A stretch of 64,000 nucleotides of DNA from Gammaproteobacteria bacterium. GTDB taxonomy: Bacteria; Pseudomonadota; Gammaproteobacteria; Pseudomonadales; IMCC2047. Below are positions 3,416 to 18,196 of the stretch, piece after piece (the first letter of the stretch is position 1; each line of letters opens with the position of its first letter). A model generated the notes under the pieces. The model was not told the DNA's origin. It ran no database searches and saw only the letters and a list, made by a program, of their open reading frames with translations. Location: contig JAJFKB010000002.1 in NCBI GenBank assembly GCA_021773395.1, positions 660,582-724,581 on the forward strand, read 5' to 3'. Both the position numbers and the translations under genes were made by a program.

Positions 3416-4123
3416 CTAGCTCTCTTCAGAAGAGGTCAAAAAGCTCCTTAGCTGCTCACCCAAACCTTTGCAGGCGTTGGCTTTTACCCTCGCCAGCAAA
3501 GGGATTGGCACCACAACAGCCGGCATATAGGATGTACCTTTAGCGTCCGCTTTGATTTTCCCAACCGTTGTCAGGTTTTTGAAATCCCAAATTGACGCCT
3601 CGTACAAAGATTCGTCATCCCAGGTACCAAATCCCAGACACCCTCCACCACCAGGCCCGATGGAACAGGCGATTGACCCCGCTGAGCTGGTTCGTTCTGT
3701 CGATCCATCAACCCAGACAATATAGCGAATACCCAATTCCGTTATACGCTCTGCTATCTGCTCTCTTTGCAACAGGTTGTTCAACCCCTCAAGATGTACC
3801 GGAGCTGTTCGAGGTTCAAACCAGGGGTAAAGGTTGTCCGCAAACTCCTGTTCCGGGATAACACTCACATTAGCTTTCTGTCCACTAATTTCACCGCCTA
3901 TACACTGAACAAAATCAAGCTCCGTTTCATAATCGCTTTTGTGCCGGCGCCCCAGAACCACAATTGACTCACTCTTCGTTATTCCGGTATAGCCCTGCCT
4001 CATTTCATTTATGGTTGTGGTAGTACAGCCTGCCAGAACTACTGCTGCCGCCATTGCTGTCAGTGCAACAAGGCTTAGCTTAAGCCACCTAATGCGCTTA
4101 TTCAGATACAGTTTTCTGTTCAT
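3416..4123 (-). CDS. Lipoprotein of unknown function, end of the envelope gene cluster
   Basis: The family is not recognised. The 235 residues begin with a basic stretch and a hydrophobic segment ending in the lipobox LAGC (Cys near residue 32), so the mature protein should be lipid-anchored. The mature part contains ERITELGIRYIVWVDGST and a Gly-rich stretch with paired Cys (SIACSIGPGGGGCLGFG). It is the last gene of the minus-strand cluster starting near 16932, and is convergent with ppa. Its layout resembles the next lipoprotein upstream only in being short and anchored. Confidence 0.75.
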   Translation of the reverse strand: MNRKLYLNKRIRWLKLSLVALTAMAAAVVLAGCTTTTINEMRQGYTGITKSESIVVLGRRHKSDYETELDFVQCIGGEISGQKANVSVIPEQEFADNLYPWFEPRTAPVHLEGLNNLLQREQIAERITELGIRYIVWVDGSTERTSSAGSIACSIGPGGGGCLGFGTWDDESLYEASIWDFKNLTTVGKIKADAKGTSYMPAVVVPIPLLARVKANACKGLGEQLRSFLTSSEES

Positions 4124-4221
4124 GCAACCTCCACTAATTGAATCAGGTTTCTAGCACATTCACAAAAGCACGCCAACTATGTTGATGTCCTGTTCACCGT
4201 TCACTCACTACCGGCGATATC

Positions 4222-4932
4222 TTATTCTCGCAACATTTTTTCAGTTTCGGCAATTGACTGATCAAGCATTGCAGCCGCCTTGTTGCTATGCGGATAAACG
4301 GCTTCCGTCGACATATCACCCGCACCCTTGTTTAATTCGTCGTTCAGCCACCTGCGCAGTTTTGGCACTCGGTTAAAACTGGTTGCGAAATTAGCGCCCG
4401 CATCTCGCAGCGCCACTATAGCCGCTTGCTCCAATGCCTCTTCACGCGATTTCATAAAAGCTTTAGGCGTCTTGCCATAGGCGGTAATCGGCCAGTTTAG
4501 CAAGGGTGCACCGGCCGCCGAATAAAGTCTCATTTTATATTTCACCCAAACCTCAAAGATCTGGCTTCGCGTTTCCCTGGGAATGGTAAATTGCAACTCC
4601 TCAACCTCGGGTGCCAACACTGCGTTTACCTTTATTGGAGCGCTATTGGATGGCAAAACTGAGAGTTGCCGGGTCTCTGAAAAAAACTGGGCAAACAGCG
4701 TATCAAACAACCGTACCTGAGACGAACCGGTACTGATACTATAATTCCCCTTCTTTTTGTCTTCTATTTCGTAGTTGTAATTGCGGAACTCTTCTGAATA
4801 ATAAACACCCATCTTGAGCGGCATCTGTTCCACCAACGGATCGGGGAAATGCCCATCAACGTGCACTACTGTACCCCCACAGCCAATCAATAGCGCAACC
4901 AAAATGAACAATATTGTGTGCATCATAAGCAA
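4222..4932 (-). CDS. Lipoprotein of unknown function
   Basis: This 236-residue protein has a short signal ending in the lipobox LLIGC (Cys near residue 18). The mature part alternates beta-like stretches and ends in a helical, acidic tail (AETEKMLRE). No family is recognised. It follows the second von Willebrand gene with a 66-base gap on the same strand, which suggests it belongs to the same envelope assembly. Confidence 0.75.
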   Translation of the reverse strand: MLMMHTILFILVALLIGCGGTVVHVDGHFPDPLVEQMPLKMGVYYSEEFRNYNYEIEDKKKGNYSISTGSSQVRLFDTLFAQFFSETRQLSVLPSNSAPIKVNAVLAPEVEELQFTIPRETRSQIFEVWVKYKMRLYSAAGAPLLNWPITAYGKTPKAFMKSREEALEQAAIVALRDAGANFATSFNRVPKLRRWLNDELNKGAGDMSTEAVYPHSNKAAAMLDQSIAETEKMLRE

Positions 4933-4998
4933 TTAGACTCAATTATCCTGAGTGATTCCCTAAACTCACTAATTTAATTAGCCCTCCTGGTATAACCA

Positions 4999-5997
4999 TT
5001 ATCGAAATTCACGCAATCCCACAAAAGTACCACCGTTTCTAAATGTTAGTTCCCGCATAAGCGTGGCAAAACGAATCCCGGTTTTTTGTAAATCCTCACG
5101 CTGGGAGAACTGCACCGGAAAACCGATCGCATGAATTCTTACCCTTTTTTCACCCGCAGCATTGGCTGTATTTATCCTATCGACCGTATCAACGACATCC
5201 TCAATTGATTTACCGGTAAATTCATCACCAAACACATAAATACTGATTTTTTTATCTGGCTCATGGAACGCCCGAATCGCTCTGGTTATACCTTCCACAG
5301 GGCTGCTATTACTAAAAGGATTCCAGGTTCGCATCCTCTGGATGATGGCCTTTCGCCGGCCCGGACTATCCGGAATCCATTGCCCGCGATAACGGGAGAA
5401 CATATAGTCTCCCATATCGTTTAAAACCTGAATCCCCTTGACTTTCGGGTAGATATTAAGAGTCGCAATCAGCTGCTCCTGCACCTTATCCCAACTATAA
5501 TTAAACATACTTCCGGAGGTATCAATCACAAAAATAATATACTCGCTATCCACGGGAATACCACCCACCAGATCATCCTTACGCCGATAGTCTTTACCAA
5601 GTAGACGCTGCATTTCAATCGTCATCGTTTGCTTTGCCAGTTGCAGCTGGCCGATTATTTTTGATTGGGTATCGGCGTCCAACCTTGACGCTTGGTACTG
5701 GGCTTCAATGCTCACCAGGTCCCCGCGCAAACGAGCCACCTTTTCGCGTAACACCGATAACTGTTCATTTTTAACTGTTAAATCTCGATTAAGAACCTTG
5801 GTTTCGCCGCGAATTTGAAATAGCTTTGCCTGTAAATCGGCTACCACTCCTTGCAAATCGACCCGTGTTTCCTCCAACACAACGGGTTCGACAATTTTTG
5901 TAATCATCAACAGCAGGATAATCGCCCCAAAGCCACAGCAAATAACATCCAGAAAAGAGATGCTAACGGTTTCTGCCTCTCGACGATTTATCCTCAT
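4999..5997 (-). CDS. Von Willebrand A protein with ExbD-like N-terminal anchor (B)
   Basis: Predicted inner-membrane protein of 332 residues. Residues 14-33 form one membrane segment opening with SFLDVICCGFGA. Its Asp17 sits where ExbD/TolR/MotB carry the ion-binding Asp. Residues about 45-135 look coiled-coil. A VWA domain follows, with the metal site D159-x-S161-x-S163, Ser at 231/232 in place of the usual Thr, and Asp258. Its start overlaps the stop of the preceding VWA gene in an ATGA, so the two are translationally coupled. A role as ion-driven plug or sensor is inferred from the neighbouring TolQ-type gene. Confidence 0.82.
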   Translation of the reverse strand: MRINRREAETVSISFLDVICCGFGAIILLLMITKIVEPVVLEETRVDLQGVVADLQAKLFQIRGETKVLNRDLTVKNEQLSVLREKVARLRGDLVSIEAQYQASRLDADTQSKIIGQLQLAKQTMTIEMQRLLGKDYRRKDDLVGGIPVDSEYIIFVIDTSGSMFNYSWDKVQEQLIATLNIYPKVKGIQVLNDMGDYMFSRYRGQWIPDSPGRRKAIIQRMRTWNPFSNSSPVEGITRAIRAFHEPDKKISIYVFGDEFTGKSIEDVVDTVDRINTANAAGEKRVRIHAIGFPVQFSQREDLQKTGIRFATLMRELTFRNGGTFVGLREFR

Positions 5998-7082
5998 GGC
6001 CAGTCCTTTGATGGACTAAGAAATGCTCCTCCGGTTGCCAACGCCAGCTTCCAATAACTCGATGCGGCCATTGGGTCCCCTTCCAGTGGCAGCAAGATAA
6101 CATTGACCGGGATACCTTTAGGTAACTCATCAATGGCCTGTTTGAACAGTTTGAGACGTTGCTTCCCTGACACCGTCGTAGCTTGTGGTTTGCGATCACC
6201 CTGCGTGGGCAACCCATCGGTAATCAAAATAATGTTGTCTGGCAGGGGCGCAAGGCGACGCACCGAGCGAAATAGATTTTCCAGACTGGTGCCATTTTCA
6301 GGAACCAGCGTTCTCAGACCATCCAGTGCTGTACCAAGCTGTTTGGTATTTTTGATTTCCAGCCAATCACCGTCCGAAGCCGGAACAAGTGGTTTAACCT
6401 GAGTATTGAAGGTATAGATTTGATACCAGCTATTCACCGGAAACTGGGCCATTAACCACTCAACTGCCCCCGTGGCTTGCTTCCACTTGGCAGAATTCAG
6501 CTTAACCTCATCTGACATATTGCGGCGTCGAAGAATATTGACGATGCTATGATCCAGCATACTGGCCGACATATCGAGCAATACCAGAATACGATTTCCG
6601 CCCAGCTTTAACCCGGTCAGATACTGCCGATCCCCTTCGCCCTGGACACGTCTTACCTTCGTACCTGTATTTTTCTTACTCTCGGCTTCCAGCCGTTTGT
6701 TTTCTGCCTCAAGCGACTTCAGATCAGATTTCAGCTTTTTAATCGTGTCACTTTGTATGGGCGTGTCTTTTAGGAACAGACTCAACTCCAGCCGTGACTT
6801 CTCAACGTCCGTTAGAATCCGACGCGATAAGCCCTGAGCTTCTACCACCTGTTGATCCACACGAGCGATGGTATTTCGTACCCGCACCAGACCCTCTTCA
6901 CCAACGCGGATATCTTCATCAAGCATATCCACCTCTGCCAGTAACGTTCTATTTACCTCTTCTGAGTGAACATTGGCGGCATGGTCGATCATGAGAAAAA
7001 TCAACACCACGGCGCCAAAACCACAGGACATAATATCCAGAAAAGAGAGGTTAAAAGTGGAAAAGCGCCGCTTGCGATGCAT
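5994..7082 (-). CDS. Von Willebrand A protein with ExbD-like N-terminal anchor (A)
   Basis: Has the same architecture as its downstream partner: a membrane segment at residues 12-32 beginning SFLDIMSCGFGA with Asp16, coiled coil at about 42-138, then a VWA domain. The metal-ion site is complete: D170-x-S172-x-S174, T265 and D289 (ITDG). The length is 362 residues. It lies nine bases after the FHA-like gene and overlaps the next VWA gene by four bases. The two proteins share the N-terminal motif but their VWA parts differ, which fits a heteromeric pair. Confidence 0.83.
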   Translation of the reverse strand: MHRKRRFSTFNLSFLDIMSCGFGAVVLIFLMIDHAANVHSEEVNRTLLAEVDMLDEDIRVGEEGLVRVRNTIARVDQQVVEAQGLSRRILTDVEKSRLELSLFLKDTPIQSDTIKKLKSDLKSLEAENKRLEAESKKNTGTKVRRVQGEGDRQYLTGLKLGGNRILVLLDMSASMLDHSIVNILRRRNMSDEVKLNSAKWKQATGAVEWLMAQFPVNSWYQIYTFNTQVKPLVPASDGDWLEIKNTKQLGTALDGLRTLVPENGTSLENLFRSVRRLAPLPDNIILITDGLPTQGDRKPQATTVSGKQRLKLFKQAIDELPKGIPVNVILLPLEGDPMAASSYWKLALATGGAFLSPSKDWP

Positions 7083-7091
7083 CAGGCCAGC

Positions 7092-8426
7092 CTAGGATTC
7101 GCGGACAACCAACAATCGCTGATGCCCATCCCCTACGATCAGCTCGTCTCCAGGTTTTAACACAGCATTTGAGCTGAGTGTCGCACCATTAACCCGAATA
7201 GATACGTCACTCTGGCGCTTAAGCAGCAGCTGGCTCTGCTCCAAAACAAACTCACAATAGATAGCATATAATTCGGCGTTATCGGTATTCAGTATTAACG
7301 ACCCGTCAGGACCAGAAGCGCCCACATATAGCTTGTCGCTCAGTTTAAAGGCCTTATCTCCATAAACAATATGGGTTGCCCGTTGCGTATCGGCTGTGAG
7401 CTGATCTGCAACTGGCTCTGGCTGATACAACTGACCATCAGGCAAGGGTAACGCAGTGACAAAACTTAAGGCTGCCTGATCTCGACAGATAAATGACAGG
7501 TTATTTTCACATCCCTGGTAGCAGGCCATATCCGACACCACCTGATAGCTGTTCAGCAAACCACAAAATCCTGGTAGCTGCGCCAATCTTGGGCTGACCA
7601 GAAGGCTTAAGCTATCGGTAACGCCACCCACTTCATGGAGCGCCTGCAACAGTTTCCGATATAAAGGCTGAACCTTTTCTACCACCTGTGATTTCAAAAG
7701 ACGCGCCTGAAAGCGATTCGCGGATCCGGTCATTTCCAAGAGCACCTCTTCCGTCTCAGCAAATGCTGCTAGCCACTGTGGCAGCTGACAATAAAGTGCC
7801 TGCTCGGATTGTGCATTATGTAAGGGGTCAAAACGACACTGCTCAATAAAGGTATCGGCGATCAACTGCACCCAGTAATCATTGAATTTTACCAAACCCA
7901 CATCGGAAGTGGTGACTACTGTGCCCCGCTGAACTTGCTCGGCGACTCTTAACTCGGTAATGACCAGCTGGTGCAGGTGTATGTCCAGATGATAGATCAG
8001 CGGCTGCAAGGTACTAACTGCAGCCGCTGCCACAGCGATATCCACTAACCCAACCACTTTAATCGAGCACTCCTTGGCAATACCCAGAAGTAACGAAAGC
8101 TGTTCATTGCTATAACTACCTGGCACCGCAAATATTACCTGGGGTGATTCTCCCAACTGCTCGGTGATCGCCTTAAGGTGTGCATAAACCAGATCGGCAT
8201 GATGCCTGTAATGGCTATTAGCTTGCGTTAATGGATCCAGACTTAATCTGTACCAGAACTGATTGTGAGATCTACGCGGGTGGATTCTGGCTTGGTTGAA
8301 AGCGACTTCGCCCACCGCTACTTTAGCATCATCGATCACAGCATAGCCTGGACCATGTGAAATGAGTTCTCCCGCACTGACCACCCGCAGGTCAGCATCT
8401 GTTATTTCGATAACATGCACGCTCAT
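7092..8426 (-). CDS. Degenerate actin/Hsp70-fold protein with C-terminal FHA-like domain
   Basis: This is a 444-residue protein with no signal peptide, so probably cytoplasmic. Residues about 95-140 (FAVPGSYSNEQ followed by VVGLVDIAVAAAA) resemble the Hsp70/actin stretch that ends in the NEPTAAA motif. SLLVSPRLAQLPG near residue 280 resembles the adenosine motif. The phosphate-binding Gly-rich loops are poor, so ATPase activity is doubtful. Residues about 350-444 read like an FHA fold, ending VNGATLSSNAVLKPGDELIVG, the typical S-x-x-NG and GD-x-I-x-x-G pattern. It sits six bases after the TolQ-type gene. Both domain calls are inferences from motif shape. Confidence 0.6.
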   Translation of the reverse strand: MSVHVIEITDADLRVVSAGELISHGPGYAVIDDAKVAVGEVAFNQARIHPRRSHNQFWYRLSLDPLTQANSHYRHHADLVYAHLKAITEQLGESPQVIFAVPGSYSNEQLSLLLGIAKECSIKVVGLVDIAVAAAAVSTLQPLIYHLDIHLHQLVITELRVAEQVQRGTVVTTSDVGLVKFNDYWVQLIADTFIEQCRFDPLHNAQSEQALYCQLPQWLAAFAETEEVLLEMTGSANRFQARLLKSQVVEKVQPLYRKLLQALHEVGGVTDSLSLLVSPRLAQLPGFCGLLNSYQVVSDMACYQGCENNLSFICRDQAALSFVTALPLPDGQLYQPEPVADQLTADTQRATHIVYGDKAFKLSDKLYVGASGPDGSLILNTDNAELYAIYCEFVLEQSQLLLKRQSDVSIRVNGATLSSNAVLKPGDELIVGDGHQRLLVVRES

Positions 8427-8432
8427 TTCATC

Positions 8433-9236
8433 TTAGCCCTCGCGCAATTTCAAGAATCGCATAAGGTTGTTATCACAGTATCTTTGATTATCGAGCACCA
8501 ACCGCTCCTGTAACAGCTGAACCTGATGTAACAGAAACATAATAATGATGCTTATAACCAATGCGATAAAGGTGGAGTTAAAGGCCACACCCAGGCTTGC
8601 GGTTACGCCAGCGATATCGCCTTCAACTGCGAGATGCGCCTGACCCAGTGCTTCACCAATTCCCCGCACCGTGCCAATAAAACCGATCGAAGGAATAGCC
8701 CAGGCAATATATCGAATCATCGATAACTCTGAATCGAGTCGATCCGACTCATTCTCACAGGTTTCGCGTATTGAGGATGAAACATCCTGGATATTGCGGG
8801 TCGACCCGAATCGCTGCAGTGCGGTATAAAGAATACGCGCCAGCAAAAACTCCTGTTCCTGCTCTGGCAGCGCTTGAATGGGCCGCAAATATTCTCGGGC
8901 ATCCTCCGGCAGAATATTCATACCTTCCGAAACCTCTACCAATCGCCTGTCCAGCAATACACGCTCGCGAAAAGCATTACGCGCCTTATAGCCCATGATT
9001 GCCATCGCCCAGAGCATCAATATAAAGCAGGACTCCTGCTCAAAATCCTTAAGAATTACATACAGAGACCGGGAAGGAATAAAGTTTTCTCCGGCGGCTT
9101 GCAGTGCCAATTGCTGTTCTAGAATCGCGTCGGCGTTTGGTCGAATGACCCCAACATAGATGGCATGCACCAATATCACCGCAACAAACAGGGCGAACAC
9201 CTGAAACATGAACTCGGATGACAGTTTACTCTTCAT
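8433..9236 (-). CDS. MotA/TolQ/ExbB-type proton channel family protein
   Basis: Predicted inner-membrane protein of 267 residues with membrane segments at about 10-31, 70-84, 174-196 and 212-238. The C-terminal pair carries the family signature: IPSIGFIGTVRGIGEAL (G188-T189-V190), then TASLGVAFNSTFIALVISI, with Thr222 in the pore-lining helix. TolQ and ExbB have three membrane segments; an extra N-terminal one is seen here. Such channels work with an ExbD/TolR/MotB partner that carries a membrane Asp, and the two VWA proteins downstream are the obvious candidates. Confidence 0.85.
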   Translation of the reverse strand: MKSKLSSEFMFQVFALFVAVILVHAIYVGVIRPNADAILEQQLALQAAGENFIPSRSLYVILKDFEQESCFILMLWAMAIMGYKARNAFRERVLLDRRLVEVSEGMNILPEDAREYLRPIQALPEQEQEFLLARILYTALQRFGSTRNIQDVSSSIRETCENESDRLDSELSMIRYIAWAIPSIGFIGTVRGIGEALGQAHLAVEGDIAGVTASLGVAFNSTFIALVISIIIMFLLHQVQLLQERLVLDNQRYCDNNLMRFLKLREG

Positions 9237-9244
9237 TGGCTATC

Positions 9245-9481
9245 CTAAATGTCGACGGGGTAGGAGACTGAACGATCTTCGGAAATATCTTCACTCGGAG
9301 TGAACGTATCGGGCGTTTTAACTCCCGCGCTCTTCTCAATCTCAGTTTCACTTTGAATAGTTTTCTCCGCTGGCTCTTGCTCTTCCAGGCTTGGGTCACC
9401 GGTATTTTTCTGAGGGTCAGCATAACCTGACAATGCTAGCGCGAACAGACCAAAATAGCATACCCTCTTTAAACAGTTCAT
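9245..9481 (-). CDS. Small exported acidic protein
   Basis: This 78-residue protein has a basic start, a hydrophobic core (YFGLFALALSGYA) and probable cleavage after GYA. There is no lipobox Cys. The mature part is about 55 acidic, disordered-looking residues with no recognised motif. It lies between the PEGA gene (four bases) and the channel gene (nine bases), so it is almost certainly co-translated with them. The close packing and signal peptide support it as real despite its size. Confidence 0.65.
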   Translation of the reverse strand: MNCLKRVCYFGLFALALSGYADPQKNTGDPSLEEQEPAEKTIQSETEIEKSAGVKTPDTFTPSEDISEDRSVSYPVDI

Positions 9482-9484
9482 GAG

Positions 9485-11551
9485 CTACTCCAAAAACCGT
9501 GCCAATCGAAAACCCAGGTCATTGCGCCCATCATTTCCATAGTCCCGATAAGACAACCGCAACTCAGCAATACTCCCATGTGCCCAGCTTGATCCTCTAA
9601 TGACGTGGTACTTGCCGCTATCCGGACCCAGCGGGTCCTCAACCACTCTATTCGACATACTCCCACCGGTGCTGTAATAGTCATGCGCCCACTCCGACAC
9701 ATTGCCACCCAAGTCATAGAGCCCATTTTGATTAGGTAAAAAACTTCCAACAGGAGCCGTAACTGCATACTTGTCATCATACTGGGTCACTATGCGGCCT
9801 ATAATAAAAGCCGCTGAGCGATCCGCATAGTTCCCGGATTTTTCAGTCGGTGGCAACTGCGCCCCCCAGGGATACTTATAGAGACCATCCTTGCTGTTTC
9901 GCGCCACCCAGGCCCACTCGGCTTCCGTCGGCAGCCGATACCCGGTTGCAGCCTCATTAAAGCCTACCACTTCCCCCTCCTCGACCCTGTAAGCTAGCGG
10001 CAAGCCTTCCCGTTCGCTCAACCAGTTACAGTACAGCGCAGCCTGCTGCCAACTCACCTTGACCACCGGCTGGCTATCACCGTCAAGACTATACCCTTCC
10101 ACATTGCCCGAGGAGTGTAGCTTTTCAAAAAGCCGGAAGTGTTGATTTGTAACTTCCTTTGTCCCTATGTAAAAGGCTCGATTTAAACTGACCTGTTTTA
10201 AAGACTCATTTGCCCGTCTGCCCGCTTCGCGGCGTGACGCTCCCATGGTCAAGGAGCCGGGTCTGAACAATTTCAACTGCTGTCCATCGCTCAGGGTTAT
10301 TATCGGCTTAACAGCCTCCCACTTTGCCTGCTCCAGAGTCTTAAGCCTGACCTTGACTTGTTGCTCTAATCCCTGCCTCGGGGTGATATAGGTTTGGTAG
10401 CTCACATATCCCTCTTTACGTATTTCCAGCATTTGCTTTTCCGTCGGCAACGAGAATACCTGATTCGCTGTACCCACATACTGATTATCAATGAAGACCT
10501 TAGCATCCGCGGGATATCCAACAACTCGTATATCAGCCACTATTGGTTCCAGCTTAATAATATACGACTGTTGTGATCCGGAGATAATCCTAAAATCTTT
10601 CTTAGCCGCGAGATAACCCGGTTTGAATAAGTTTAGCTGGTAGCGCTGCTTCGGTTTTAGTGAAAGACTTAAGGGTGTTTGGCCGCGAAAAACATCGTCC
10701 ACCATGACGTTCGCCTGACTCGGCTCACTTTGTATCCTGACTACGCCGTCAAGCGGCTCCAGCCGCACCATCGGTAAAGTTAAGGATTGATTCGCTTCGA
10801 CGGACAGCTTCTGTTGCCAATTTTTATAACCTTCAAAAGATAAAATTAAAAGCCGTTCACCTTGCATCACCTCTACACTTTTTGGGGTGTAACCTTGCGG
10901 CTCATTATCAACCAAAATAGTCGCACCTGGCGGCTCCGAACTCATACTGATATCACTCCAGGCTGGCTTCAACTCAACCGACATTTGGTGGGCTAAATCC
11001 TTACCTTCTATCTCGATATCGGTTGATTGGCTTATATAACGTCCAGCTTCCAGTCCAACGCTATACCGGCCCGCCTCTATCAAATAATCCGTTACCGGTG
11101 TTTTTCCAATAGCTTCTCCATCAACCAAGACCGCCGCACCTTCGGGCACAGATCTCACAAACAGTCTTCCAGGCAGTTTTAACATCTGGAAATCAAATTT
11201 CTGATTTGGCTCTTGCGATACTTCTATCGGTTGTTCAAGCGTCCGATAACCCTTCTGTTTCGCCTGGATTAAATATTCACCCGGGCGCATCAAATAACGC
11301 TCTCCCAGAGTGATGACAATGCCACCTTTAATCTCTACATGCTCTGCCACCGGCTCAAAGGAAAGATAAACTGAACGAGCGGTGAACACGTACCACATGG
11401 CTATCAGGAGCAATAGAAATACACACCCAAGTATGGCCGTGACAGGTTTAATCCACGGCTTTTCGGTAATACGGCCCGCATCTACCGGCTTAAAATTCAG
11501 CGGCTTGATGACATTTTCCTGATCGGCATTCGGTTCTAGATTATCTGGCAT
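9485..11551 (-). CDS. Four-PEGA membrane protein with C-terminal formylglycine-enzyme-like domain
   Basis: This is a 688-residue protein with a single membrane segment at about 37-57, so the rest should be periplasmic. About four PEGA-type repeats follow (for example VPEGAAVLVDGEAIGKTP, EPPGATILVDNEPQGYTP). Residues about 440-688 match the FGE-sulfatase/SUMF1 fold: GYRLPTEAEWAWVAR, NGLYDLGGNVSEWAHDYY, VIRGSSWAHG and GFRLAR. The catalytic Cys pair expected in and after the RGGSW segment is missing (WAHGSIAELR), so it is probably a binding rather than oxidising domain. TagR of type VI secretion also has an FGE-like domain. Confidence 0.85.
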   Translation of the reverse strand: MPDNLEPNADQENVIKPLNFKPVDAGRITEKPWIKPVTAILGCVFLLLLIAMWYVFTARSVYLSFEPVAEHVEIKGGIVITLGERYLMRPGEYLIQAKQKGYRTLEQPIEVSQEPNQKFDFQMLKLPGRLFVRSVPEGAAVLVDGEAIGKTPVTDYLIEAGRYSVGLEAGRYISQSTDIEIEGKDLAHQMSVELKPAWSDISMSSEPPGATILVDNEPQGYTPKSVEVMQGERLLILSFEGYKNWQQKLSVEANQSLTLPMVRLEPLDGVVRIQSEPSQANVMVDDVFRGQTPLSLSLKPKQRYQLNLFKPGYLAAKKDFRIISGSQQSYIIKLEPIVADIRVVGYPADAKVFIDNQYVGTANQVFSLPTEKQMLEIRKEGYVSYQTYITPRQGLEQQVKVRLKTLEQAKWEAVKPIITLSDGQQLKLFRPGSLTMGASRREAGRRANESLKQVSLNRAFYIGTKEVTNQHFRLFEKLHSSGNVEGYSLDGDSQPVVKVSWQQAALYCNWLSEREGLPLAYRVEEGEVVGFNEAATGYRLPTEAEWAWVARNSKDGLYKYPWGAQLPPTEKSGNYADRSAAFIIGRIVTQYDDKYAVTAPVGSFLPNQNGLYDLGGNVSEWAHDYYSTGGSMSNRVVEDPLGPDSGKYHVIRGSSWAHGSIAELRLSYRDYGNDGRNDLGFRLARFLE

Positions 11552-11651
11552 TCCCTATATCCGCAAACTAAACTATCTCGCTATCTACCAATGCTTTCGG
11601 CTCTGATCCGGCAAACCTTTCGTAAAGGCGAAATGTTGCTTTGTGACCTGA

Positions 11652-13169
11652 TTAAATCTTTTCCTCGCACTGGATTTTTATCGGCCCGACCAGCGTTTTT
11701 TTGGATACCACAAACTCTTTTCGCACGTCGCGATACCCCACACGCTTACCTATTAAAACATAGCCCCCTGGTTTTAAAGACAGCTCACGCTGAGTAAAAT
11801 TTCCTAAGTGTCCAACTTTATAAAGGGTTACATCGGTCTCGTTATCCGACTCTATACGCACCAGCGAAGGCTCTATGGCCTGTTTGAGAAGAGTCATTAA
11901 ACTGTCAATTTGACCCATCAATCTCGGCCCGGGGTTCGCCACAGTTCCAGCAACACCCAACAGCTGTTCGGCTTCTCGATAAACTGCATCGCTGGTTAAT
12001 CGGCTCGGATCTGCAAGCTGCTCCTGCAGCAGGTCGTCAAGCCGCGCTCGATCGCCGGTACGTTTTAAACCCTGTTGCGCAAATATTAAATTTGGATCGA
12101 GTGCCAGTACCGCTTGATATTGTTTTTGTGCTGCATGCCATTGCTCGCTCTCTACCAGCTTCTTTGCCTCTGCGCGCAAATGGGCAATCTTGTTTTGCAC
12201 CAGCAAATTGGTCACTTCTGCACGTCCGGTATTTGCTTCAGCTGACCGTGGTTTTAACTGACCTGCTCTAGTGAAATGTTTTTCTGCCTGGATCAGACGG
12301 TTTTGCTGTAATGCTCGATAACCCTCAGACATGGCCAGTGAAAAATCCCGCTCCAGTATCTTTGCTTTAATGGCATTTATCGCTGTTTTCGCCTGCAGTG
12401 ATTCATCATCAAGCGCCAGCGCCTCTTGCAAACTATTTTGCGCACTATCAAAATCTGCCTGCTGCTCCATCTGCTTTGCCTTTTGCACAAGCAGATTCAC
12501 TCTATCCAGGGTAGCAACACGCTTGAGACCGTTATGCGCTGCTTCATTATCCGGATCAATTATTCGTACTAGCTCAAATGCTGCACGAGCCTGCTCGGCC
12601 AATCCATCATGAATAGATTGGAAACCGACTTGCAGCTGCTGCTCGATCACAGCATTTACGCTGTCAGCGATGCTGCGCATCAGTTCGAGACTCTCACTGT
12701 AGAGCTTTGCTGCGTTCTGAAACTGCCGCTCACGATATTTCTCATCCCCCTGGGTTGCCAGTGCTGCGGCCTCTGAAAACTGCTGTTGCGCCCATAACCT
12801 GACACTTTTCTCTTCCAGTTCAAATTGCAGATCGAGCAACGGCTCCAAAATCTGCTGTGCCTGCTGCCTTTCTCTAGCCAACTGCGCTTCCTGCCAAGGG
12901 GAAATCTCTGGCGGGATCTGCACTGCCCTGGTATTTTCTTGCGTAACTACATCTGGCTGTGTAATAAAGCGCGGCAGCATGACAAATACTGCAATTGCCA
13001 GGGCTACAGACAGTGAGAAGCTTGCTATCAACCATTTCTTGTGAATATTCTTATCTGAATCAGCACGAGAAGTTTGACTGTCGCTTGGCCCTTGAGGAGA
13101 TATCTCAATTTTTGCAGGAGTGATTTTTTCAAATTCGGGCAAGTTCGGATCAGTCGAATCGTTTTGCAT
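11652..13169 (-). CDS. Membrane-anchored TPR protein with PEGA-like C-terminus
   Basis: This 505-residue protein has a hydrophilic cytoplasmic head of about 45 residues, a membrane segment at 46-66 and a long helical periplasmic region. Several tetratricopeptide-like units are visible, for example YRERQFQNAAKLYSESLEL and EQWHAAQKQYQAVLALDPN. The last 70 residues turn beta-rich (LSLKPGGYVLIGKRVGYRDV), resembling one PEGA-type unit like those of the next protein. It probably scaffolds the complex. The gene is 100 bases upstream of the PEGA/FGE-like gene on the same strand. Confidence 0.78.
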   Translation of the reverse strand: MQNDSTDPNLPEFEKITPAKIEISPQGPSDSQTSRADSDKNIHKKWLIASFSLSVALAIAVFVMLPRFITQPDVVTQENTRAVQIPPEISPWQEAQLARERQQAQQILEPLLDLQFELEEKSVRLWAQQQFSEAAALATQGDEKYRERQFQNAAKLYSESLELMRSIADSVNAVIEQQLQVGFQSIHDGLAEQARAAFELVRIIDPDNEAAHNGLKRVATLDRVNLLVQKAKQMEQQADFDSAQNSLQEALALDDESLQAKTAINAIKAKILERDFSLAMSEGYRALQQNRLIQAEKHFTRAGQLKPRSAEANTGRAEVTNLLVQNKIAHLRAEAKKLVESEQWHAAQKQYQAVLALDPNLIFAQQGLKRTGDRARLDDLLQEQLADPSRLTSDAVYREAEQLLGVAGTVANPGPRLMGQIDSLMTLLKQAIEPSLVRIESDNETDVTLYKVGHLGNFTQRELSLKPGGYVLIGKRVGYRDVRKEFVVSKKTLVGPIKIQCEEKI

Positions 13170-13380
13170 AGAGGGTTAATTTCTTTATTCTTCGGCACTC
13201 AGAAGGCGGCACCATTTTGGTGATTAGGGAACCTATGATTAATTTCTCAGCCTTAGGGAATATTACATAACTGCTGTGCTCGGCAATACCGAGTTAAAAA
13301 CCGGCTAAAAAGTTTATTTATGATTATAAACTCCTTTTTTCTTCTCTTTCTTCCACTATAGACCTGATGCAAGGTTTCCT
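13170..13380. other. Largest spacer inside the envelope cluster
   Basis: This 211-base gap separates the TPR gene from the upstream lipoprotein gene. It contains short palindromes (CACCATTTTGGTG near 13210 and CTCGGCAATACCGAG near 13279) and a stretch at 13224-13250 similar to the end of the MITEs found later in the window. No confident promoter or ORF is seen. If the cluster has an internal promoter, this is where it would fit. Confidence 0.3.
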
Positions 13381-14571
13381 TTAATTTTTACCTTCAACTG
13401 ACTCAGTTTCAGTAACATAAATATCATACAGAATTTCACGCCACTTACTATATTGATCATCCACTGTTCCCGTCAGGGTGACGGTTCGATCCTGCAACTC
13501 CACCACCTGAGGCTCGACCTCCAACTCTAACGAGTTACCCAGCTCCTGCAACGCCTCCTGGTGCAGCTGTGATTCTGCGCGTTTATCCAGCCCGCTTTTA
13601 AAAAGGTACGCGCCACCAATAATACCAACCTGTCCTGCAGCTTCAACCGACCCATCTCCCGATCCTGCTGCTGCCACACCTGCGATAATAGCAGCCGTAC
13701 CTGCGATCATTCGATTCCTCGCAGCACGACGCAGTTCACGCAAGGCAACCACTTCATCATAGGTCATCTTACGCCATTCCAGATAGGGTTTGCCCATTTC
13801 CATCGCAAAAGAGGAATAATAATCCTGCAACGTATCTATATATAGATAATCACGTTCTCTTATCTGCCGTACACGAATTAAAAGCGGCTCATTAACAGGT
13901 GGTAATCTCACGATCTCATAGATTCCAGCTTTATTGGCCTGCATATACTCTGAAAAGGCATCGGGAGAAAAGCTGCGCGCAAACTTAAGTTCGGAAAGAG
14001 TTCGAATCCGTTTTAGTTGTGCGGGTGATAACTGCTCTCGAAAAGTCAGCATGTCATTGGCAATACGATTATAGAGCCCCTGAAATGGGTCTAATTGCGC
14101 ATGCATTTTATCGTCATAATTATACTTACTGGTGATTTCTTCGTATTCCCGGACAAACCATGTCTTACCTGAGCTGTCGCTCACACTAATCTCCAGCTGC
14201 AACATTTCACCATCGGAATGTAGGATTTTCCCCTCAACATACAGATCGACAATACTCTCTTTACTCGGCACAATTCTAACCGCACCCCAGCTTGCGTTCT
14301 TTTGCAATGTCTCAGTCAGGGTAAAAGGAATGTATCTGGACTCGGCTTTACGGATTTCCGGCAGAGTGATGGCTTTCTTGTCCTCCAATAATTCATCAAT
14401 GCCCGGATTAAATATCAGCACCCCCACATCAAGCAATTGACTTTCCAAAATCTCAGTCGTTTCATACTTTAGCGGTGTAATACTGGTCGTTTTAACGGTG
14501 GTGCTGGCGCAACCGGCCAATACCAGTATCGTTAACCAAAAACAGGTAAATTTTTGCACCCCGTTCACCAT
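13381..14571 (-). CDS. Lipoprotein with Gly-rich hydrophobic segment and BON-like tail
   Basis: The 396-residue protein starts with a signal peptide ending in the lipobox LAGC (Cys near residue 21). The middle is mixed alpha/beta with no known family. Residues about 288-330 form a Gly/Ala-rich hydrophobic stretch (GTAAIIAGVAAAG, VGIIGGAYLF) that could insert in a membrane. The tail (VVELQDRTVTLTGTVDD) has the look of a BON domain, a guess. Its ATG overlaps the stop of the gene before it (TAATG), which implies coupled translation. Confidence 0.75.
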   Translation of the reverse strand: MVNGVQKFTCFWLTILVLAGCASTTVKTTSITPLKYETTEILESQLLDVGVLIFNPGIDELLEDKKAITLPEIRKAESRYIPFTLTETLQKNASWGAVRIVPSKESIVDLYVEGKILHSDGEMLQLEISVSDSSGKTWFVREYEEITSKYNYDDKMHAQLDPFQGLYNRIANDMLTFREQLSPAQLKRIRTLSELKFARSFSPDAFSEYMQANKAGIYEIVRLPPVNEPLLIRVRQIRERDYLYIDTLQDYYSSFAMEMGKPYLEWRKMTYDEVVALRELRRAARNRMIAGTAAIIAGVAAAGSGDGSVEAAGQVGIIGGAYLFKSGLDKRAESQLHQEALQELGNSLELEVEPQVVELQDRTVTLTGTVDDQYSKWREILYDIYVTETESVEGKN

Positions 14572-15563
14572 TATTTACTCTTACCCTGATTCTTGTACTT
14601 GCGATATTCATCCCATAATTTCTCCCGCAACTCGGGATCAGGTTCCTGTATCGCCGCTTCCCGCAGTTGTCGCGCCACCACGTCATCGTCCGTTCCGTCA
14701 GGAATGTCCGGAGGAGGCGCGTGAGACACTGCCGCATGCTCGAACTCTCCCGCTCGCTGATCACCACCCTCAGGCCTGCTTCCTGAGCCAGCACCTGTTA
14801 TCTCTCCTCTTGGTTCACCCTGCTGCTCACCGGGAGCCTGCTTTTCTTCCAAATCACTATCAACATCTTCACCACTGCCGCGGGCGTTTTCCTTACCCCG
14901 GACATATTCTCGCTCTCTCAGAATGACGCCTTCAAAATCCCCATAGGATTCTTCCAATTTCCGATCAAGTATTGCAATCTTTTCCTCGCCAGTTTGCGCA
15001 CTGTTTGGTGCGCCTTGGCTACCCCCGGGATTATCATCGGCCGCTCCCTCAAACCCCTCCATTTTTTCTATTGCATCTCCCACCACCTCATTTTCTGACT
15101 CCAGGATTATGGGAAAATCTGTTTGTTCTTCCGCCGCCCCTTTACCCTGCTCACTCTTTCGTGCCCGCTCAAACTCTTCCAATGCTTCCGAGAGAGTTCT
15201 TTCCTCAGTATCGTCGGTGCCTGCTACCGATCCTTTCGACCCATTATTATCCTTGCTGATACTCGCATCACTAGCCCCTGCACGCGACACTTTCTCCGCA
15301 CCACCCTGTTTGTCATAACTTTTGTTTTTGCCTGTTTTCTCCTGCCCTCCCGACTGTGGGCTTGGCAGCGACGGCGATGGATTACGCCCTCCGCCACTTG
15401 GCAGGCTGGAACTAGAACCAGAACTGCCCGAAGAAGTCTCTGTTGATGGGCTACCCGGTGAACCACTTCCTCCGGATGTTTGAGGGATCGTTTTACAGCC
15501 GTAGCACATCGCACAGATTACCACGAGCGAAATCAACTTGAGGGGTGCACCTGGATTTAGCAT
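14571..15563 (-). CDS. Low-complexity Ser/Gly/Glu-rich lipoprotein
   Basis: The 330-residue product is chosen from the ATG at 15563, because the longer frame would need a TTG at 15608. A short basic start and a hydrophobic core run to Cys22 (MCYGC), a loose lipobox. The rest is almost all Ser, Gly, Pro, Glu, Lys and Gln with no Trp until near the end (LWDEYRKYKNQGKSK), so it is expected to be disordered and extended, perhaps a periplasm-spanning or surface linker. No family is recognised. It is translationally coupled to the next gene. Confidence 0.68.
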   Translation of the reverse strand: MLNPGAPLKLISLVVICAMCYGCKTIPQTSGGSGSPGSPSTETSSGSSGSSSSLPSGGGRNPSPSLPSPQSGGQEKTGKNKSYDKQGGAEKVSRAGASDASISKDNNGSKGSVAGTDDTEERTLSEALEEFERARKSEQGKGAAEEQTDFPIILESENEVVGDAIEKMEGFEGAADDNPGGSQGAPNSAQTGEEKIAILDRKLEESYGDFEGVILREREYVRGKENARGSGEDVDSDLEEKQAPGEQQGEPRGEITGAGSGSRPEGGDQRAGEFEHAAVSHAPPPDIPDGTDDDVVARQLREAAIQEPDPELREKLWDEYRKYKNQGKSK

Positions 15564-15618
15564 TTTAGTGTTTCTCAATACTGTTAATGTGTCTAACCTT
15601 AAAATCAATGTGTCTAGC

Positions 15619-16932
15619 CTAAAAATCGAAAATGTGTTTTTCCATCACGCCTTTTGCCAACACTGGTTTACCCTCGACAATGCGAGGGCGGTAACGAGTG
15701 CTTTTCACCGACTTATATACCTGAGAATCTTTTACGTTCGGAGGGCTTGATTCGACGATTTCAATATTTTGGGTGCGGCCTCCGGGTGTTACCGTAAACT
15801 TGACGCGCACAAAACCTTTTTGTTTCTTTTTATCCAGTTTAGCGCCTATATCATCGAAAGGCATAGCAAAATTAAGTGCTCGCGGTCTATCAAATATTTG
15901 TTTTGCCAGGTGCTCTTGATCTTTGCCCGATAGCAGCTCAATCGCCCCTGTATAGACATCCATTGCAGACTCTTTTTTGTCAAACAAAAAATACCAGTCA
16001 CCCAGCTGTACTAAAGCTTCCACATGATCACTAACAGGTAGCTGAGGGTTACTCTGAAACAGATTTACACGCCTCAGCAACGCTTTTTTACCGTCACGGT
16101 AAGGACTCCCATAGGTAGGCAGATTATCCGAAGGAGAGATAGGCAGCGTTCTGCCTTGCGCTGGAGACATCCCCATGGGCTGGGAAATACTGTTTGGTTG
16201 ACTAAATTGTTGACTATGATTTTGGTGTTCCGATAGATAATAGCTCGCGAGAGCCTGCCTGTATAAGGTTTCATTCAAACGTGGGTCATGGACGCCATAG
16301 TGCTTCTCGATAATCGCTATTGCTTTCTTATTCAAATCCATCGCACGCAGCAGATGAAGGATGCTAGAACCTCGGTGAAAAGCAATTAAGTGCCATTTAA
16401 CCATATTATTAATGGGTGCTAACAGCTTGGGGTTTCCCTCACCATAGCTATGCTGCTGTATGTTATAGAGCAACGATTGTTTATCATTCGCGCTCCGCCA
16501 ATCCTCAATGGCAACATAGCTTTCAATCAAATGTGACAATATCGAAACTTGATCCAGACTATATAACCCGCTATTTACACGCCTGATATGGAACGCGCGT
16601 TTGAATGCGCCGATCGCAGAAACTTCTTCACCTTGCGATTTTTCAGCCAATCCCAAACCAACCAATTGCTCTACCAGGCGGTTATCATAGACGCCATAGT
16701 TATTCTCCAACTCTGTAATGGTCTGCCTGTAGAGTTCCTTGGAACCATGATATTCATGCATGTCGCTATGCGTTTTCGTTGCGAGGGTTGCAGATTCATC
16801 TTTGGCAAGTTCCTGGCTGTTCGGGATATTTGGCGACTCGCCAGATGAAATCAACGGATCAGAGGCCCCAAGCGGGCCGGCAAAAAAGACCAATGACAAA
16901 AAAACCGGAATGAACTTAATTCTCTTATTCAC
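15619..16932 (-). CDS. Exported TPR-like protein with TonB C-terminal domain
   Basis: The 437-residue product is read from a GTG at 16932, which puts a clean signal peptide (NKRIKFIPVFLSLVFFAGPLGA) at the start; an ATG at 17031 would add 33 residues that look unlike a signal. The middle is helical with TPR-like repeats. The last 80 residues fit TonB_C: GFVRVKFTVTPGGRTQNIEIVESSP, then YRPRIVEGKPV. Unlike classical TonB there is no retained membrane anchor or Pro-rich spanner. It is the first gene of the cluster as read, 55 bases before the low-complexity lipoprotein gene. Confidence 0.78.
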   Translation of the reverse strand: MNKRIKFIPVFLSLVFFAGPLGASDPLISSGESPNIPNSQELAKDESATLATKTHSDMHEYHGSKELYRQTITELENNYGVYDNRLVEQLVGLGLAEKSQGEEVSAIGAFKRAFHIRRVNSGLYSLDQVSILSHLIESYVAIEDWRSANDKQSLLYNIQQHSYGEGNPKLLAPINNMVKWHLIAFHRGSSILHLLRAMDLNKKAIAIIEKHYGVHDPRLNETLYRQALASYYLSEHQNHSQQFSQPNSISQPMGMSPAQGRTLPISPSDNLPTYGSPYRDGKKALLRRVNLFQSNPQLPVSDHVEALVQLGDWYFLFDKKESAMDVYTGAIELLSGKDQEHLAKQIFDRPRALNFAMPFDDIGAKLDKKKQKGFVRVKFTVTPGGRTQNIEIVESSPPNVKDSQVYKSVKSTRYRPRIVEGKPVLAKGVMEKHIFDF

Positions 16933-17145
16933 ACTATGGCCATAACTCTTTCTAGAGCATGAAGGGAAACTTATTGCGCAGCGCGTAAGCACTAAGGAGC
17001 CAAAACTCAAGTGACACTGCAGTCCCTGCATTTACGGCCAGCAATTTCAGAGACCCAATTGGGTTATTCTGTGCACCAACAGATGCCAGTTACTTTATAA
17101 CCAGTTACTTCAGAAAACTTTACAACAAGCTCTACCAGAGTCTGA

Positions 17146-17209: not shown

Positions 17210-18196
17210 TCAACCTTGAGAAAGGAGTTCTCTTAAATCGATAATGGCGGCATTAGCTCTGGCAATGTAGGATGCCATCACTAGAGAGTGATTTGCAAAC
17301 AGCCCAAAACCACTTCCATTTAAGATGATTGGACTAAGCATCGGTTCCTGGGTTGATTCCAGCTCTCGTATAATTTGCTGTAGGCTGATCAGTGCATTCT
17401 TCTTCTTAAGGGTTTCAGCAAAATCGATCTCGATCGCCTTTAGTAAATGTACCAGCGCCCACGCCGTACCTCGGGTTTCATAAAAGACATCATCCACCTG
17501 ATACCAGGGTGTTTTAATTTCCAACTCCTTCGGCAACTCGGTAGACTGACTCGCCTCGGCTTCACCGGCCAGATCGGTGTTGATGCGACGCTGTCCGACA
17601 CTAGCACTGAGCCTTTGCGACAAACTTCCCAGTCTTGTCTCTATATCAGCCAACCAGTTACGCAGATTATCCGCTCTTGCATAAAACTGAGCGCTATTCG
17701 GATCCGCACTGGACAGACCGCCCAAGTAGCGTTTCAGCGATTCGATGCCGGTTTTGTATTCTGATTCGCTGGCAGGAAACATCCAACTGCTGTTATCAAA
17801 ATTAAATTGTGGCTCTGCGACAGCCAGATTAACATCTTCAACAGACTGAGATTGAGATCGACTAAAATCCTTGCGTAAAGCCCTCGACATGTCACGTACC
17901 TGAACCAGGACCCCGAACTCCCAATTAGGTATGTTATCCAGCCACACGCCCGGCACGCCTATGTCGTTTGACAAAAAACCACCCGGCTTCTCCATTAACA
18001 TTGAAGCCACTTCAATCAGTGTATTAGTAGTAACATAACCAACTACGGGTACAGCTGTTGTTCCCACTGATCCCTCTTTTTCTACCTGTACATCAAACAA
18101 ATCAGGTTCACTACTCCAATAAAAACCCAACAATAGCAGCAGTACAAGCAACGTCAGGAGCGTTATCCCAGCCACTTTTTTCATATTATTCATCAA
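17210..18196 (-). CDS. DUF2333 family membrane-anchored protein
   Basis: The 328-residue protein has one N-terminal membrane segment (ITLLTLLVLLLLLGFYW, about residues 10-27) and a soluble helical rest. VGYVTTNTLIEVASMLMEKPGGFLSND and the DNIPNWEFGVLVQVRDMSRALR stretch are characteristic of the DUF2333 family of gammaproteobacteria, recognised by look. The function is unknown. It is on the same strand as the envelope cluster but separated by a REP-like hairpin, so it is probably a separate unit. Confidence 0.75.
   Translation of the reverse strand: MMNNMKKVAGITLLTLLVLLLLLGFYWSSEPDLFDVQVEKEGSVGTTAVPVVGYVTTNTLIEVASMLMEKPGGFLSNDIGVPGVWLDNIPNWEFGVLVQVRDMSRALRKDFSRSQSQSVEDVNLAVAEPQFNFDNSSWMFPASESEYKTGIESLKRYLGGLSSADPNSAQFYARADNLRNWLADIETRLGSLSQRLSASVGQRRINTDLAGEAEASQSTELPKELEIKTPWYQVDDVFYETRGTAWALVHLLKAIEIDFAETLKKKNALISLQQIIRELESTQEPMLSPIILNGSGFGLFANHSLVMASYIARANAAIIDLRELLSQG

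What the first reader, a model, noticed from the sequence alone, without database searches (positions are those of the whole stretch)
3416..16932. Uncharacterised envelope machine: TolQ-type channel, paired VWA/ExbD-like proteins, FHA-like, PEGA/FGE-like, TPR, lipoproteins and TonB_C protein
Seen: twelve minus-strand genes, mostly with spacers under 100 bases and two stop/start overlaps (ATGA at 5994, TAATG at 14571). Known: MotA/TolQ/ExbB proteins power envelope machines with an ExbD/TolR/MotB partner. Inference: the VWA proteins replace that partner, the TPR and PEGA proteins span the periplasm and the lipoproteins reach the outer membrane. The combination does not match Tol-Pal, Ton, flagellar stators, gliding motors, Zorya or type VI secretion as I know them.
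Basis: partly seen in the sequence, partly recalled or inferred. Interest (0 to 1): 0.82.

Follow-up and report, generated by a model that had tools for sequence, protein, structure and literature searches.

The report
Uncharacterised motor spanning cell envelope
A conserved set of bacterial genes seems to build a proton-driven motor acting across the cell envelope; its core was predicted in 2025, and almost every copy that could be judged here also carries an overlooked tiny exported protein with an almost unchanging tail, whose role is untested.

Summary
The window carries a 12-gene minus-strand locus (3416-17031), counting a 78-aa gene (9245-9481) that the finding does not name. In 33 loci with enough flank (window included; found through the first VWA gene) seven partners keep company: lipoprotein D, TPR, PEGA-FGE and second VWA in 33 of 33, small gene and channel in 32, lipoprotein C in 31. 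The other four genes are additions.

The motor core, a TolQ-like channel with two different VWA proteins in place of ExbD/TolR, was proposed from structure predictions in 2025 (PMC12204202; section 8 read). The "FHA-like" protein is mainly an Hsp70-type fold with an FHA-like end. Lipoprotein C weakly resembles LptE, PelC and TolB.

New here as far as searched: the small gene encodes an apparently exported peptide ending in [F/Y/M]-P-x-D-I in 49 of 50 evaluable loci from two classes, with varied codons. Both VWA proteins keep MIDAS metal-site motifs. I propose that the tail is a docking ligand, most likely of a VWA MIDAS. Docking, stoichiometry and cellular role are untested.

The parts
15619..17031 (-). 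tonBC: TPR protein with TonB_C end; accessory (14 of 33 loci, a lower bound because some stretches end before it)
14571..15608 (-). lipoD: probable lipoprotein, long low-complexity linker, conserved C-terminal segment; core (33 of 33)
13381..14571 (-). lipoC: lipoprotein with LptE/PelC/TolB-N-like domain (weak) and long glycine-rich helices; core (31 of 33)
11652..13169 (-). tpr: membrane-anchored TPR protein, C-terminal part PEGA-like by eye; core (33 of 33)
9485..11551 (-). pegaFGE: membrane-anchored protein with four PEGA stretches and an FGE-like domain resembling GldK (below its cut-off); core (33 of 33)
9245..9481 (-). small gene, 78 aa, hydrophobic N-terminus, C-terminus ...SYPVDI; core (32 of 33 by the tail pattern; the 33rd has a deviant tail)
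8433..9236 (-). motA: MotA/TolQ/ExbB channel; core (32 of 33)
7092..8426 (-). actFHA: Hsp70 nucleotide-binding-domain fold plus FHA-like C-terminal domain; accessory (23 of 33)
5994..7082 (-). vwaA: ExbD-like helix with Asp, coiled coil, VWA head with MIDAS motif; core (the search query)
4999..5997 (-). vwaB: paralogue of vwaA with the same layout; core (33 of 33)
4222..4932 (-). lipoB: lipoprotein of no known Pfam family; accessory (18 of 33)
3416..4123 (-). lipoA: lipoprotein of no known Pfam family; accessory (16 of 33)

Best explanation
A proton-driven trans-envelope force machine. Five copies of the MotA-type protein would surround one vwaA plus one vwaB helix, each carrying a proton-binding Asp, as an obligate heterodimer. 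Ion flow would turn or move this pair, and the coiled coils would carry the motion to two VWA heads in the periplasm. The heads would engage partners through their MIDAS metal sites. The exported peptide, whose free C-terminus is -PxDI, is proposed as such a ligand: it would couple the heads to the pegaFGE/TPR scaffold or hold the motor in one state. The scaffold would pass force to outer-membrane lipoproteins lipoC (possibly a ring, by analogy with PelC) and lipoD (flexible linker with a conserved end). The Hsp70/FHA protein, lipoA, lipoB, the TonB_C protein and, elsewhere, an M48 peptidase are additions, the first plausibly cytoplasmic control. Shown by sequence: gene set, paralogue pair, conserved Asp and MIDAS motifs, invariant tail. 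Predicted: folds of actFHA and lipoC. Inferred: stoichiometry, proton drive, export and cleavage of the peptide, tail docking, topology, force on the outer membrane. Most likely job (weakest step): Tol-Pal- or T9SS-like mechanical work on an outer-membrane lipoprotein assembly.
For: Synteny: 33 loci with enough flank, core genes in 31-33. Motor: MotA_ExbB domain with Thr189, Thr212 and Thr222 invariant in 11 rows; vwaA Asp in 43 of 43 rows that reach the N-terminus (6 of 49 were cut by my start call), vwaB Asp in 48 of 48 rows. Two paralogues: 23 vwaA and 23 vwaB rows from 23 loci fall on two sides of one branch at 100/100. Same core published from AF3 models. MIDAS DxSxS in 48 of 49 vwaA and 48 of 48 vwaB rows. 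Tail in 49 of 50 evaluable loci with 4 Pro, 3 Ile and 2 Asp codons and all three stops. The one deviant tail (IPSDM, L064) is in the only locus whose vwaA MIDAS lost its first Asp. lipoC fold; pegaFGE resembles GldK.
Against: No complex was modelled and nothing was measured. The L064 coincidence is one case in a locus whose motA lies on another contig and whose lipoC was not detected in the 20 kb, so general drift explains it as well; its vwaB MIDAS is intact. L040 has Asn at the MIDAS Thr position with a normal tail. In the short forms at most 22-27 residues follow the hydrophobic core, so if that segment stays in the membrane the tail may not reach a VWA head behind a coiled coil. The tail could bind the FGE domain, the TPR or the channel instead. 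The lipoC matches are weak (only 1 match at E 0.001 or better; TM-score by target 0.34 for LptE, about 0.5 for PelC, about 0.2 for TolB). A weak relative, L075 (G145), has a channel-like and a vwaB-like gene but no such tail in the 450 bases before its channel gene; it is not in the 50. Many of the 52 loci are close relatives.
Confidence: 0.5

Rival explanations
1. Same motor, but the small protein's tail is held by the FGE-like domain of pegaFGE (or, less likely, by the TPR or the channel), so it is an assembly tether and not a MIDAS ligand.
For: True FGE enzymes bind an extended peptide in a cleft (recalled). The small gene directly follows pegaFGE in most loci, also in L062 and L065 where motA has moved behind vwaB. 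The FGE domain is well conserved.
Against: In L066 an insertion separates pegaFGE from the small gene, which stays with motA. Conservation of the FGE domain is also expected from its fold. TPR conservation is low.
Confidence: 0.25
2. A secretion or surface-motion machine of T9SS type: the motor drives a GldK-like FGE scaffold under the outer membrane to export or move surface proteins.
For: FGE-like domain with a GldK match of E 7.1e-34 beside a MotA-family channel; GldK is part of a moving track in Bacteroidota (PMC12635249, passages only).
Against: 117.8 bits against a GldK cut-off of 350, and no GldL, GldM or GldN match among ten proteins. pegaFGE is anchored by an inner-membrane-type helix (by eye), not a lipoprotein.
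Confidence: 0.2
3. The exported peptide is cargo or a signal that the machine exports or senses, not a subunit.
For: It is very small and apparently exported; in the short forms at most 22-27 residues follow the hydrophobic core.
Against: The motif lies at the extreme C-terminus and stays invariant while the rest varies in length and make-up, which fits a docking tail at least as well; no separate receptor or export gene was recognised in the locus.
Confidence: 0.12
4. An anti-phage motor of Zorya type.
For: MotA-family channel; weak ZorA match, E 0.005.
Against: No ZorB, ZorC, ZorD or ZorE match among ten proteins scanned. The locus is an ordered set of 8 to 12 envelope genes; vwaA not found on 72,556 plasmid records.
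Confidence: 0.03

Closest known systems
TPH-vWA pairs with TolQ-like motors (PMC12204202, 2025, computational)
   Same: TolQ-like gene, two different vWA proteins with an ExbD-like helix and Asp, no tolR/exbD nearby; reported there predominantly in Proteobacteria and Verrucomicrobia
   Different: The section and legend read name none of the rest of this locus (peptide, pegaFGE, TPR of this set, lipoC, lipoD, Hsp70/FHA). Figures and supplements were not available, so Fig. 4c may show some of these neighbours
Tol-Pal
   Same: Proton-driven motor and outer-membrane lipoproteins; lipoC has a weak match to the TolB fold
   Different: No TolR, TolA or Pal recognised in the locus; this genome has its own YbgC-TolQ-TolR-TolA set (by eye)
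Type 9 secretion / gliding motor (GldK, L, M, N)
   Same: MotA-family motor with an FGE-like protein
   Different: GldK match far below cut-off; no GldL, GldM, GldN match; VWA heads
MotAB, ExbBD, Zorya ZorAB
   Same: MotA_ExbB channel and single-helix Asp partner
   Different: Two paralogous partners with VWA heads in place of one partner of the MotB, ExbD or ZorB kind
PelC and LptE (outer-membrane lipoproteins)
   Same: Fold of the lipoC N-terminal domain, weakly
   Different: lipoC adds long glycine-rich helices; no Pel or Lpt gene recognised in the locus

Membership tests
TPH-vWA / TolQ-like motors (PMC12204202) | TolQ-like gene adjacent to vWA genes, no tolR/exbD | tested here: met
   locus read gene by gene. 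Between channel and vwaA lies actFHA in the window; directly adjacent in the short forms
TPH-vWA / TolQ-like motors (PMC12204202) | vWA genes in heterologous pairs | tested here: met
   two groups at 100/100, 23 + 23 rows; vwaB in 33 of 33 full loci
TPH-vWA / TolQ-like motors (PMC12204202) | Transpore helix with conserved Asp | tested here: met
   vwaA 43 of 43 evaluable rows, vwaB 48 of 48
TPH-vWA / TolQ-like motors (PMC12204202) | Helices sit in the pentamer pore ringed by Thr | not testable with these tools
   no multimer prediction here; Thr residues invariant in 11 rows
Tol-Pal | TolR, TolA and Pal with TolQ | tested here: not met
   no such match in scans of ten locus proteins with Pfam and NCBIfam and of tonBC with Pfam; tol set elsewhere
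Type 9 secretion / gliding | GldK/PorK equivalog | tested here: not met
   117.8 bits against cut-off 350
Type 9 secretion / gliding | GldL, GldM, GldN | tested here: not met
   no match among ten proteins scanned; tonBC and the small gene were not scanned with NCBIfam
Zorya | ZorA and ZorB | tested here: not met
   only weak ZorA, best E 0.005, no ZorB (lipoD and the small gene not scanned)
ExbBD-TonB | ExbD partner | tested here: not met
   no ExbD match in the locus
Hsp70 (for actFHA) | Hsp70 nucleotide-binding-domain fold | tested here: met
   Foldseek E about 3e-16 to NBD-only chains such as 6b1n, TM-score by target 0.68, rmsd 4.3 A, on a predicted model
Hsp70 (for actFHA) | Glycine-rich phosphate-binding loops | tested here: inconclusive
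   not seen in the alignment of 11 rows; read by eye against a recalled consensus
FHA (for actFHA) | FHA sequence family | tested here: inconclusive
   no Pfam match in 11 members; weak matches to two FHA structures, E 0.037 and 0.05

The most novel reading that the evidence does not exclude
A proton-driven motor whose heterodimeric VWA heads work only through a tiny exported peptide: the peptide's free C-terminal -PxDI sits on a MIDAS metal as a detachable coupling or clutch between motor and outer-membrane load, a way of gating a rotary motor that none of the papers seen here describes.
Probability: 0.27. Interest if true: 0.88.

Novelty: new variant of a known kind. Interest (0 to 1): 0.68.

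Why it matters
Few kinds of proton-driven 5:2 motor have a known task. This one recurs in two bacterial classes with an eight-gene core, which suggests an important job in the envelope, and none of the seven answered paper searches here showed an experimental study of it. The near-invariant tail gives a short handle, a synthetic peptide of about a dozen residues, with which the motor's partner could be found, and makes the role of VWA heads in bacterial motors directly testable.

Tried and rejected
Genome-wide sorting signal: patterns for F-P-x-D-I-stop and Y-P-x-D-I-stop in the own genome gave 1 and 5 hits over both strands (one of the five is the gene itself, and one ends in TGG, which the pattern admits), against 4 and 1 for the control patterns read backwards. 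So the tail is not a common ending there; I did not check whether the other hits end real genes. RNA element or overlap with motA instead of a protein tail: rejected because codons and stops vary while the residues do not. TPR carboxylate clamp for the tail: disfavoured by low conservation of the TPR. Zorya: weak ZorA only. Plasmid carriage: tblastn of vwaA against 72,556 plasmid records found nothing. Profile search of solved structures: nothing for the channel or lipoC, only a coiled-coil stretch for vwaA. The second structure job went to lipoC.

Weak or dropped rows: of 36 class genomes at E 0.001 I count 31 as strong (own included); G083, G115, G145, G192 and G315 have only weak or partial matches. 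Of 22 in the phylum search I count 15 as strong; G618, G432, G435, G460, G462, G471 and G617 are weak. Three strong phylum places (G623, G595, G635) were not fetched. L075 (from G145) and L076 (an upstream piece of the L040 genome) gave no vwaA by my models and are left out of the counts; L075 does hold a channel-like and a vwaB-like gene, without the tail in the 450 bases before the channel gene. L033 and L034 appear to be the same contig; only L034 is counted. L066/L067, L085/L090, L056/L058/L059 and others are close relatives.
Full report
What is there. The window has twelve minus-strand genes from 3416 to 17031: lipoA, lipoB, vwaB, vwaA, actFHA, motA, a 78-aa gene, pegaFGE, tpr, lipoC, lipoD and tonBC (names mine). 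Ten of eleven junctions are 100 bases or shorter, two of them overlaps. Beyond lipoA lie, on the other strand, genes that I read by eye as inorganic pyrophosphatase and phosphofructokinase; beyond tonBC a DUF2333 gene (Pfam E 1e-154). The one named relative is a 'Pseudomonadales bacterium' metagenome assembly.

Families. Channel: MotA_ExbB, E 6.9e-16; NCBIfam tolQ, E 1.9e-7, far below its cut-off. vwaA: VWA_2, 8.9e-8; vwaB: VWA_2 only 0.019, below cut-off, but its alignment shows the same layout of helix, coiled coil and VWA domain. pegaFGE: PEGA 3e-52 and FGE-sulfatase 1.9e-39, GldK 7.1e-34, below cut-off. tonBC: TonB_C 1.5e-9. lipoA, lipoB, lipoC, lipoD: no family over its cut-off.

Company. 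Relatives of vwaA were found in 12 of 57 close genomes (own included), 36 of 369 of the class (31 strong, own included) and 22 of 398 of the phylum (15 strong, 12 of them in one family of another class). I fetched all 11 close loci, the 30 other strong class places plus the weak G145 (one further entry is an upstream piece of a close locus), and 10 of the 13 new strong phylum places. With the window, 52 loci hold vwaA. Among the 33 (window included) with at least 7.4 kb upstream and 1.1 kb downstream of vwaA, the counts are: lipoD 33, tpr 33, pegaFGE 33, vwaB 33, small gene 32 (by its tail), motA 32, lipoC 31, actFHA 23, lipoB 18, lipoA 16, tonBC 14, M48 peptidase 12. tonBC and other outer genes are lower bounds because some stretches end before them. 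In the second class the locus is lipoD-lipoC-tpr-pegaFGE-small-motA-vwaA-vwaB (the loci long enough to show it). The order is the same in most loci; in L062 and L065 motA lies after vwaB, in L066 other ORFs separate pegaFGE from the small gene, and in L051 and L063 lipoA lies upstream.

The motor. The genome has six other MotA-type genes in five clusters. Each cluster has a gene with an ExbD/TolR/MotB-like start: a YbgC-TolQ-TolR-TolA set, an ExbB-ExbD pair, a Ton set with two channel genes, and two MotA-MotB sets (assigned by eye). The window's motA has only the VWA pair. Both VWA proteins start with an ExbD-like helix with Asp: vwaA 43 of 43 rows that reach the N-terminus (6 of 49 cut by my start call), vwaB 48 of 48. 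A tree of 23 of the loci puts all vwaA on one side of a branch and all vwaB on the other at 100/100. This favours one of each per motor, that is a heterodimer (inference).

What was known. PMC12204202 (Mol Biol Evol, June 2025; abstract start, section 8 with Fig. 4 legend whole; passages) describes vWA proteins with a 'transpore helix' that co-occur with tolQ homologues without tolR/exbD, predominantly as heterologous pairs, modelled in the pentamer by AF3, and ends by calling such systems still to be discovered. That is this core. PMC12505986 (passages only) has no 'VWA' in its main text. PMC12635249 (passages only) shows GldK as part of a moving track. The seven answered paper searches (listings only) showed no study of the wider locus; the library lacks most subscription papers and bioRxiv, one search listed only 10 of 706 and only 10 of 40, and I could not see figures or supplements.

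The small gene. The first sign was an unlisted ORF of about 100 aa between pegaFGE and motA in six relatives, and a 78-aa ORF at the same place in the window. A scan of all frames of the fetched loci for [FYWM]-P-x-D-[IVL]-stop gave this gene in 39 of 42 loci with vwaA and in 10 of 10 later ones, with one stray hit elsewhere in the window. So 49 of 52 loci have [F/Y/M]-P-x-D-I-stop. Of the other three, L045 ends before the place, L069 is fragmentary with broken frames, and L064 ends in IPSDM: 49 of 50 evaluable. At position -5 there are 45 F, 3 Y, 1 M; at -3 V, A, S, I or T. Positions -4, -2 and -1 are fixed by the pattern, but the wider scan found no V or L at -1 at that place. Codons vary: four for Pro, three for Ile, two for Asp, three stops. 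All 49 have a hydrophobic stretch before the tail (best 12-residue hydropathy 1.21 in L068, 2.02 or more in the rest); in 13 loci (L071-L074 and the nine of the second class) at most 22-27 residues follow it. No signal-peptide predictor was available, so export and cleavage are inferred.

What the tail may bind. Both VWA proteins keep the MIDAS signature DxSxS (vwaA 48 of 49 rows, vwaB 48 of 48), with the later Asp in all rows; the vwaA Thr position is Thr or Ser in 47 of 49, Asn in L040 and Ala in L064. MIDAS sites bind acidic side chains or, in complement, a C-terminal carboxylate (recalled; one search was only a listing). A tail ending in Asp-Ile-COOH suits that. L064, the one locus with a different tail, is the one whose vwaA MIDAS lost its first Asp, but its motA lies on another contig with no other core gene in the 20 kb fetched and its lipoC was not detected, so this is a hint only. 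The FGE domain is the chief rival; TPR and channel are possible.

Other parts. AF2 on the actFHA alignment (11 rows) gave pLDDT 88.5, pTM 0.71; the 50 Foldseek rows shown are nearly all Hsp70-type chains (E 5.6e-18 at best; NBD-only chains about 3e-16, TM-score by target about 0.68). The C-terminal all-beta part fits the weak FHA hits. lipoC (26 rows, pLDDT 80.3) matches LptE (E 7.8e-4), PelC (1.8e-3) and TolB (2.9e-3), with TM-scores by query of only about 0.2 because one domain is matched. lipoD has a long low-complexity linker and a conserved end; a P-x-D-[IVL] motif precedes that end in 21 of 26 rows (counted by eye).

Verdict. A real, conserved, experimentally uncharacterised envelope machine, as far as the searches named show, whose motor core has been predicted in print. 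New here, with the same limit: the conserved eight-gene core, the Hsp70 fold of the accessory protein, the lipoC fold hint, and above all the apparently exported peptide with its near-invariant C-terminus.

Noticed in passing
L047, L048, L073: Three genomes of one family (f164) carry either the long (L047, L048) or the short (L073) form; the short form groups with loci of another class in the vwaA and vwaB trees, which suggests horizontal transfer.
   Followed up: partly
L064 and L097: In G267 the channel gene lies on another contig, away from the rest; small-gene tail and vwaA MIDAS have both changed.
   Followed up: partly
L075: Genome G145 has a channel-like and a vwaB-like gene in another arrangement, perhaps a distant relative of the system.
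   Followed up: no
L036 6906-8339, L040 12748-14295: An M48 peptidase gene lies at the lipoA end of the locus in 12 of 33 full loci; not beside the window's locus.
   Followed up: partly
window 14571-15608: lipoD carries a P-x-D-I motif before its conserved C-terminal segment, like the small gene's tail (21 of 26 rows have P-x-D-[IVL], by eye); perhaps a ligand for the second VWA head.
   Followed up: no
window 5994-7082: vwaA ends in Trp-Pro at its own C-terminus, invariant in 29 rows.
   Followed up: no
window 17210-18196: DUF2333 gene directly upstream, also beside the locus in the closest relative L034.
   Followed up: no
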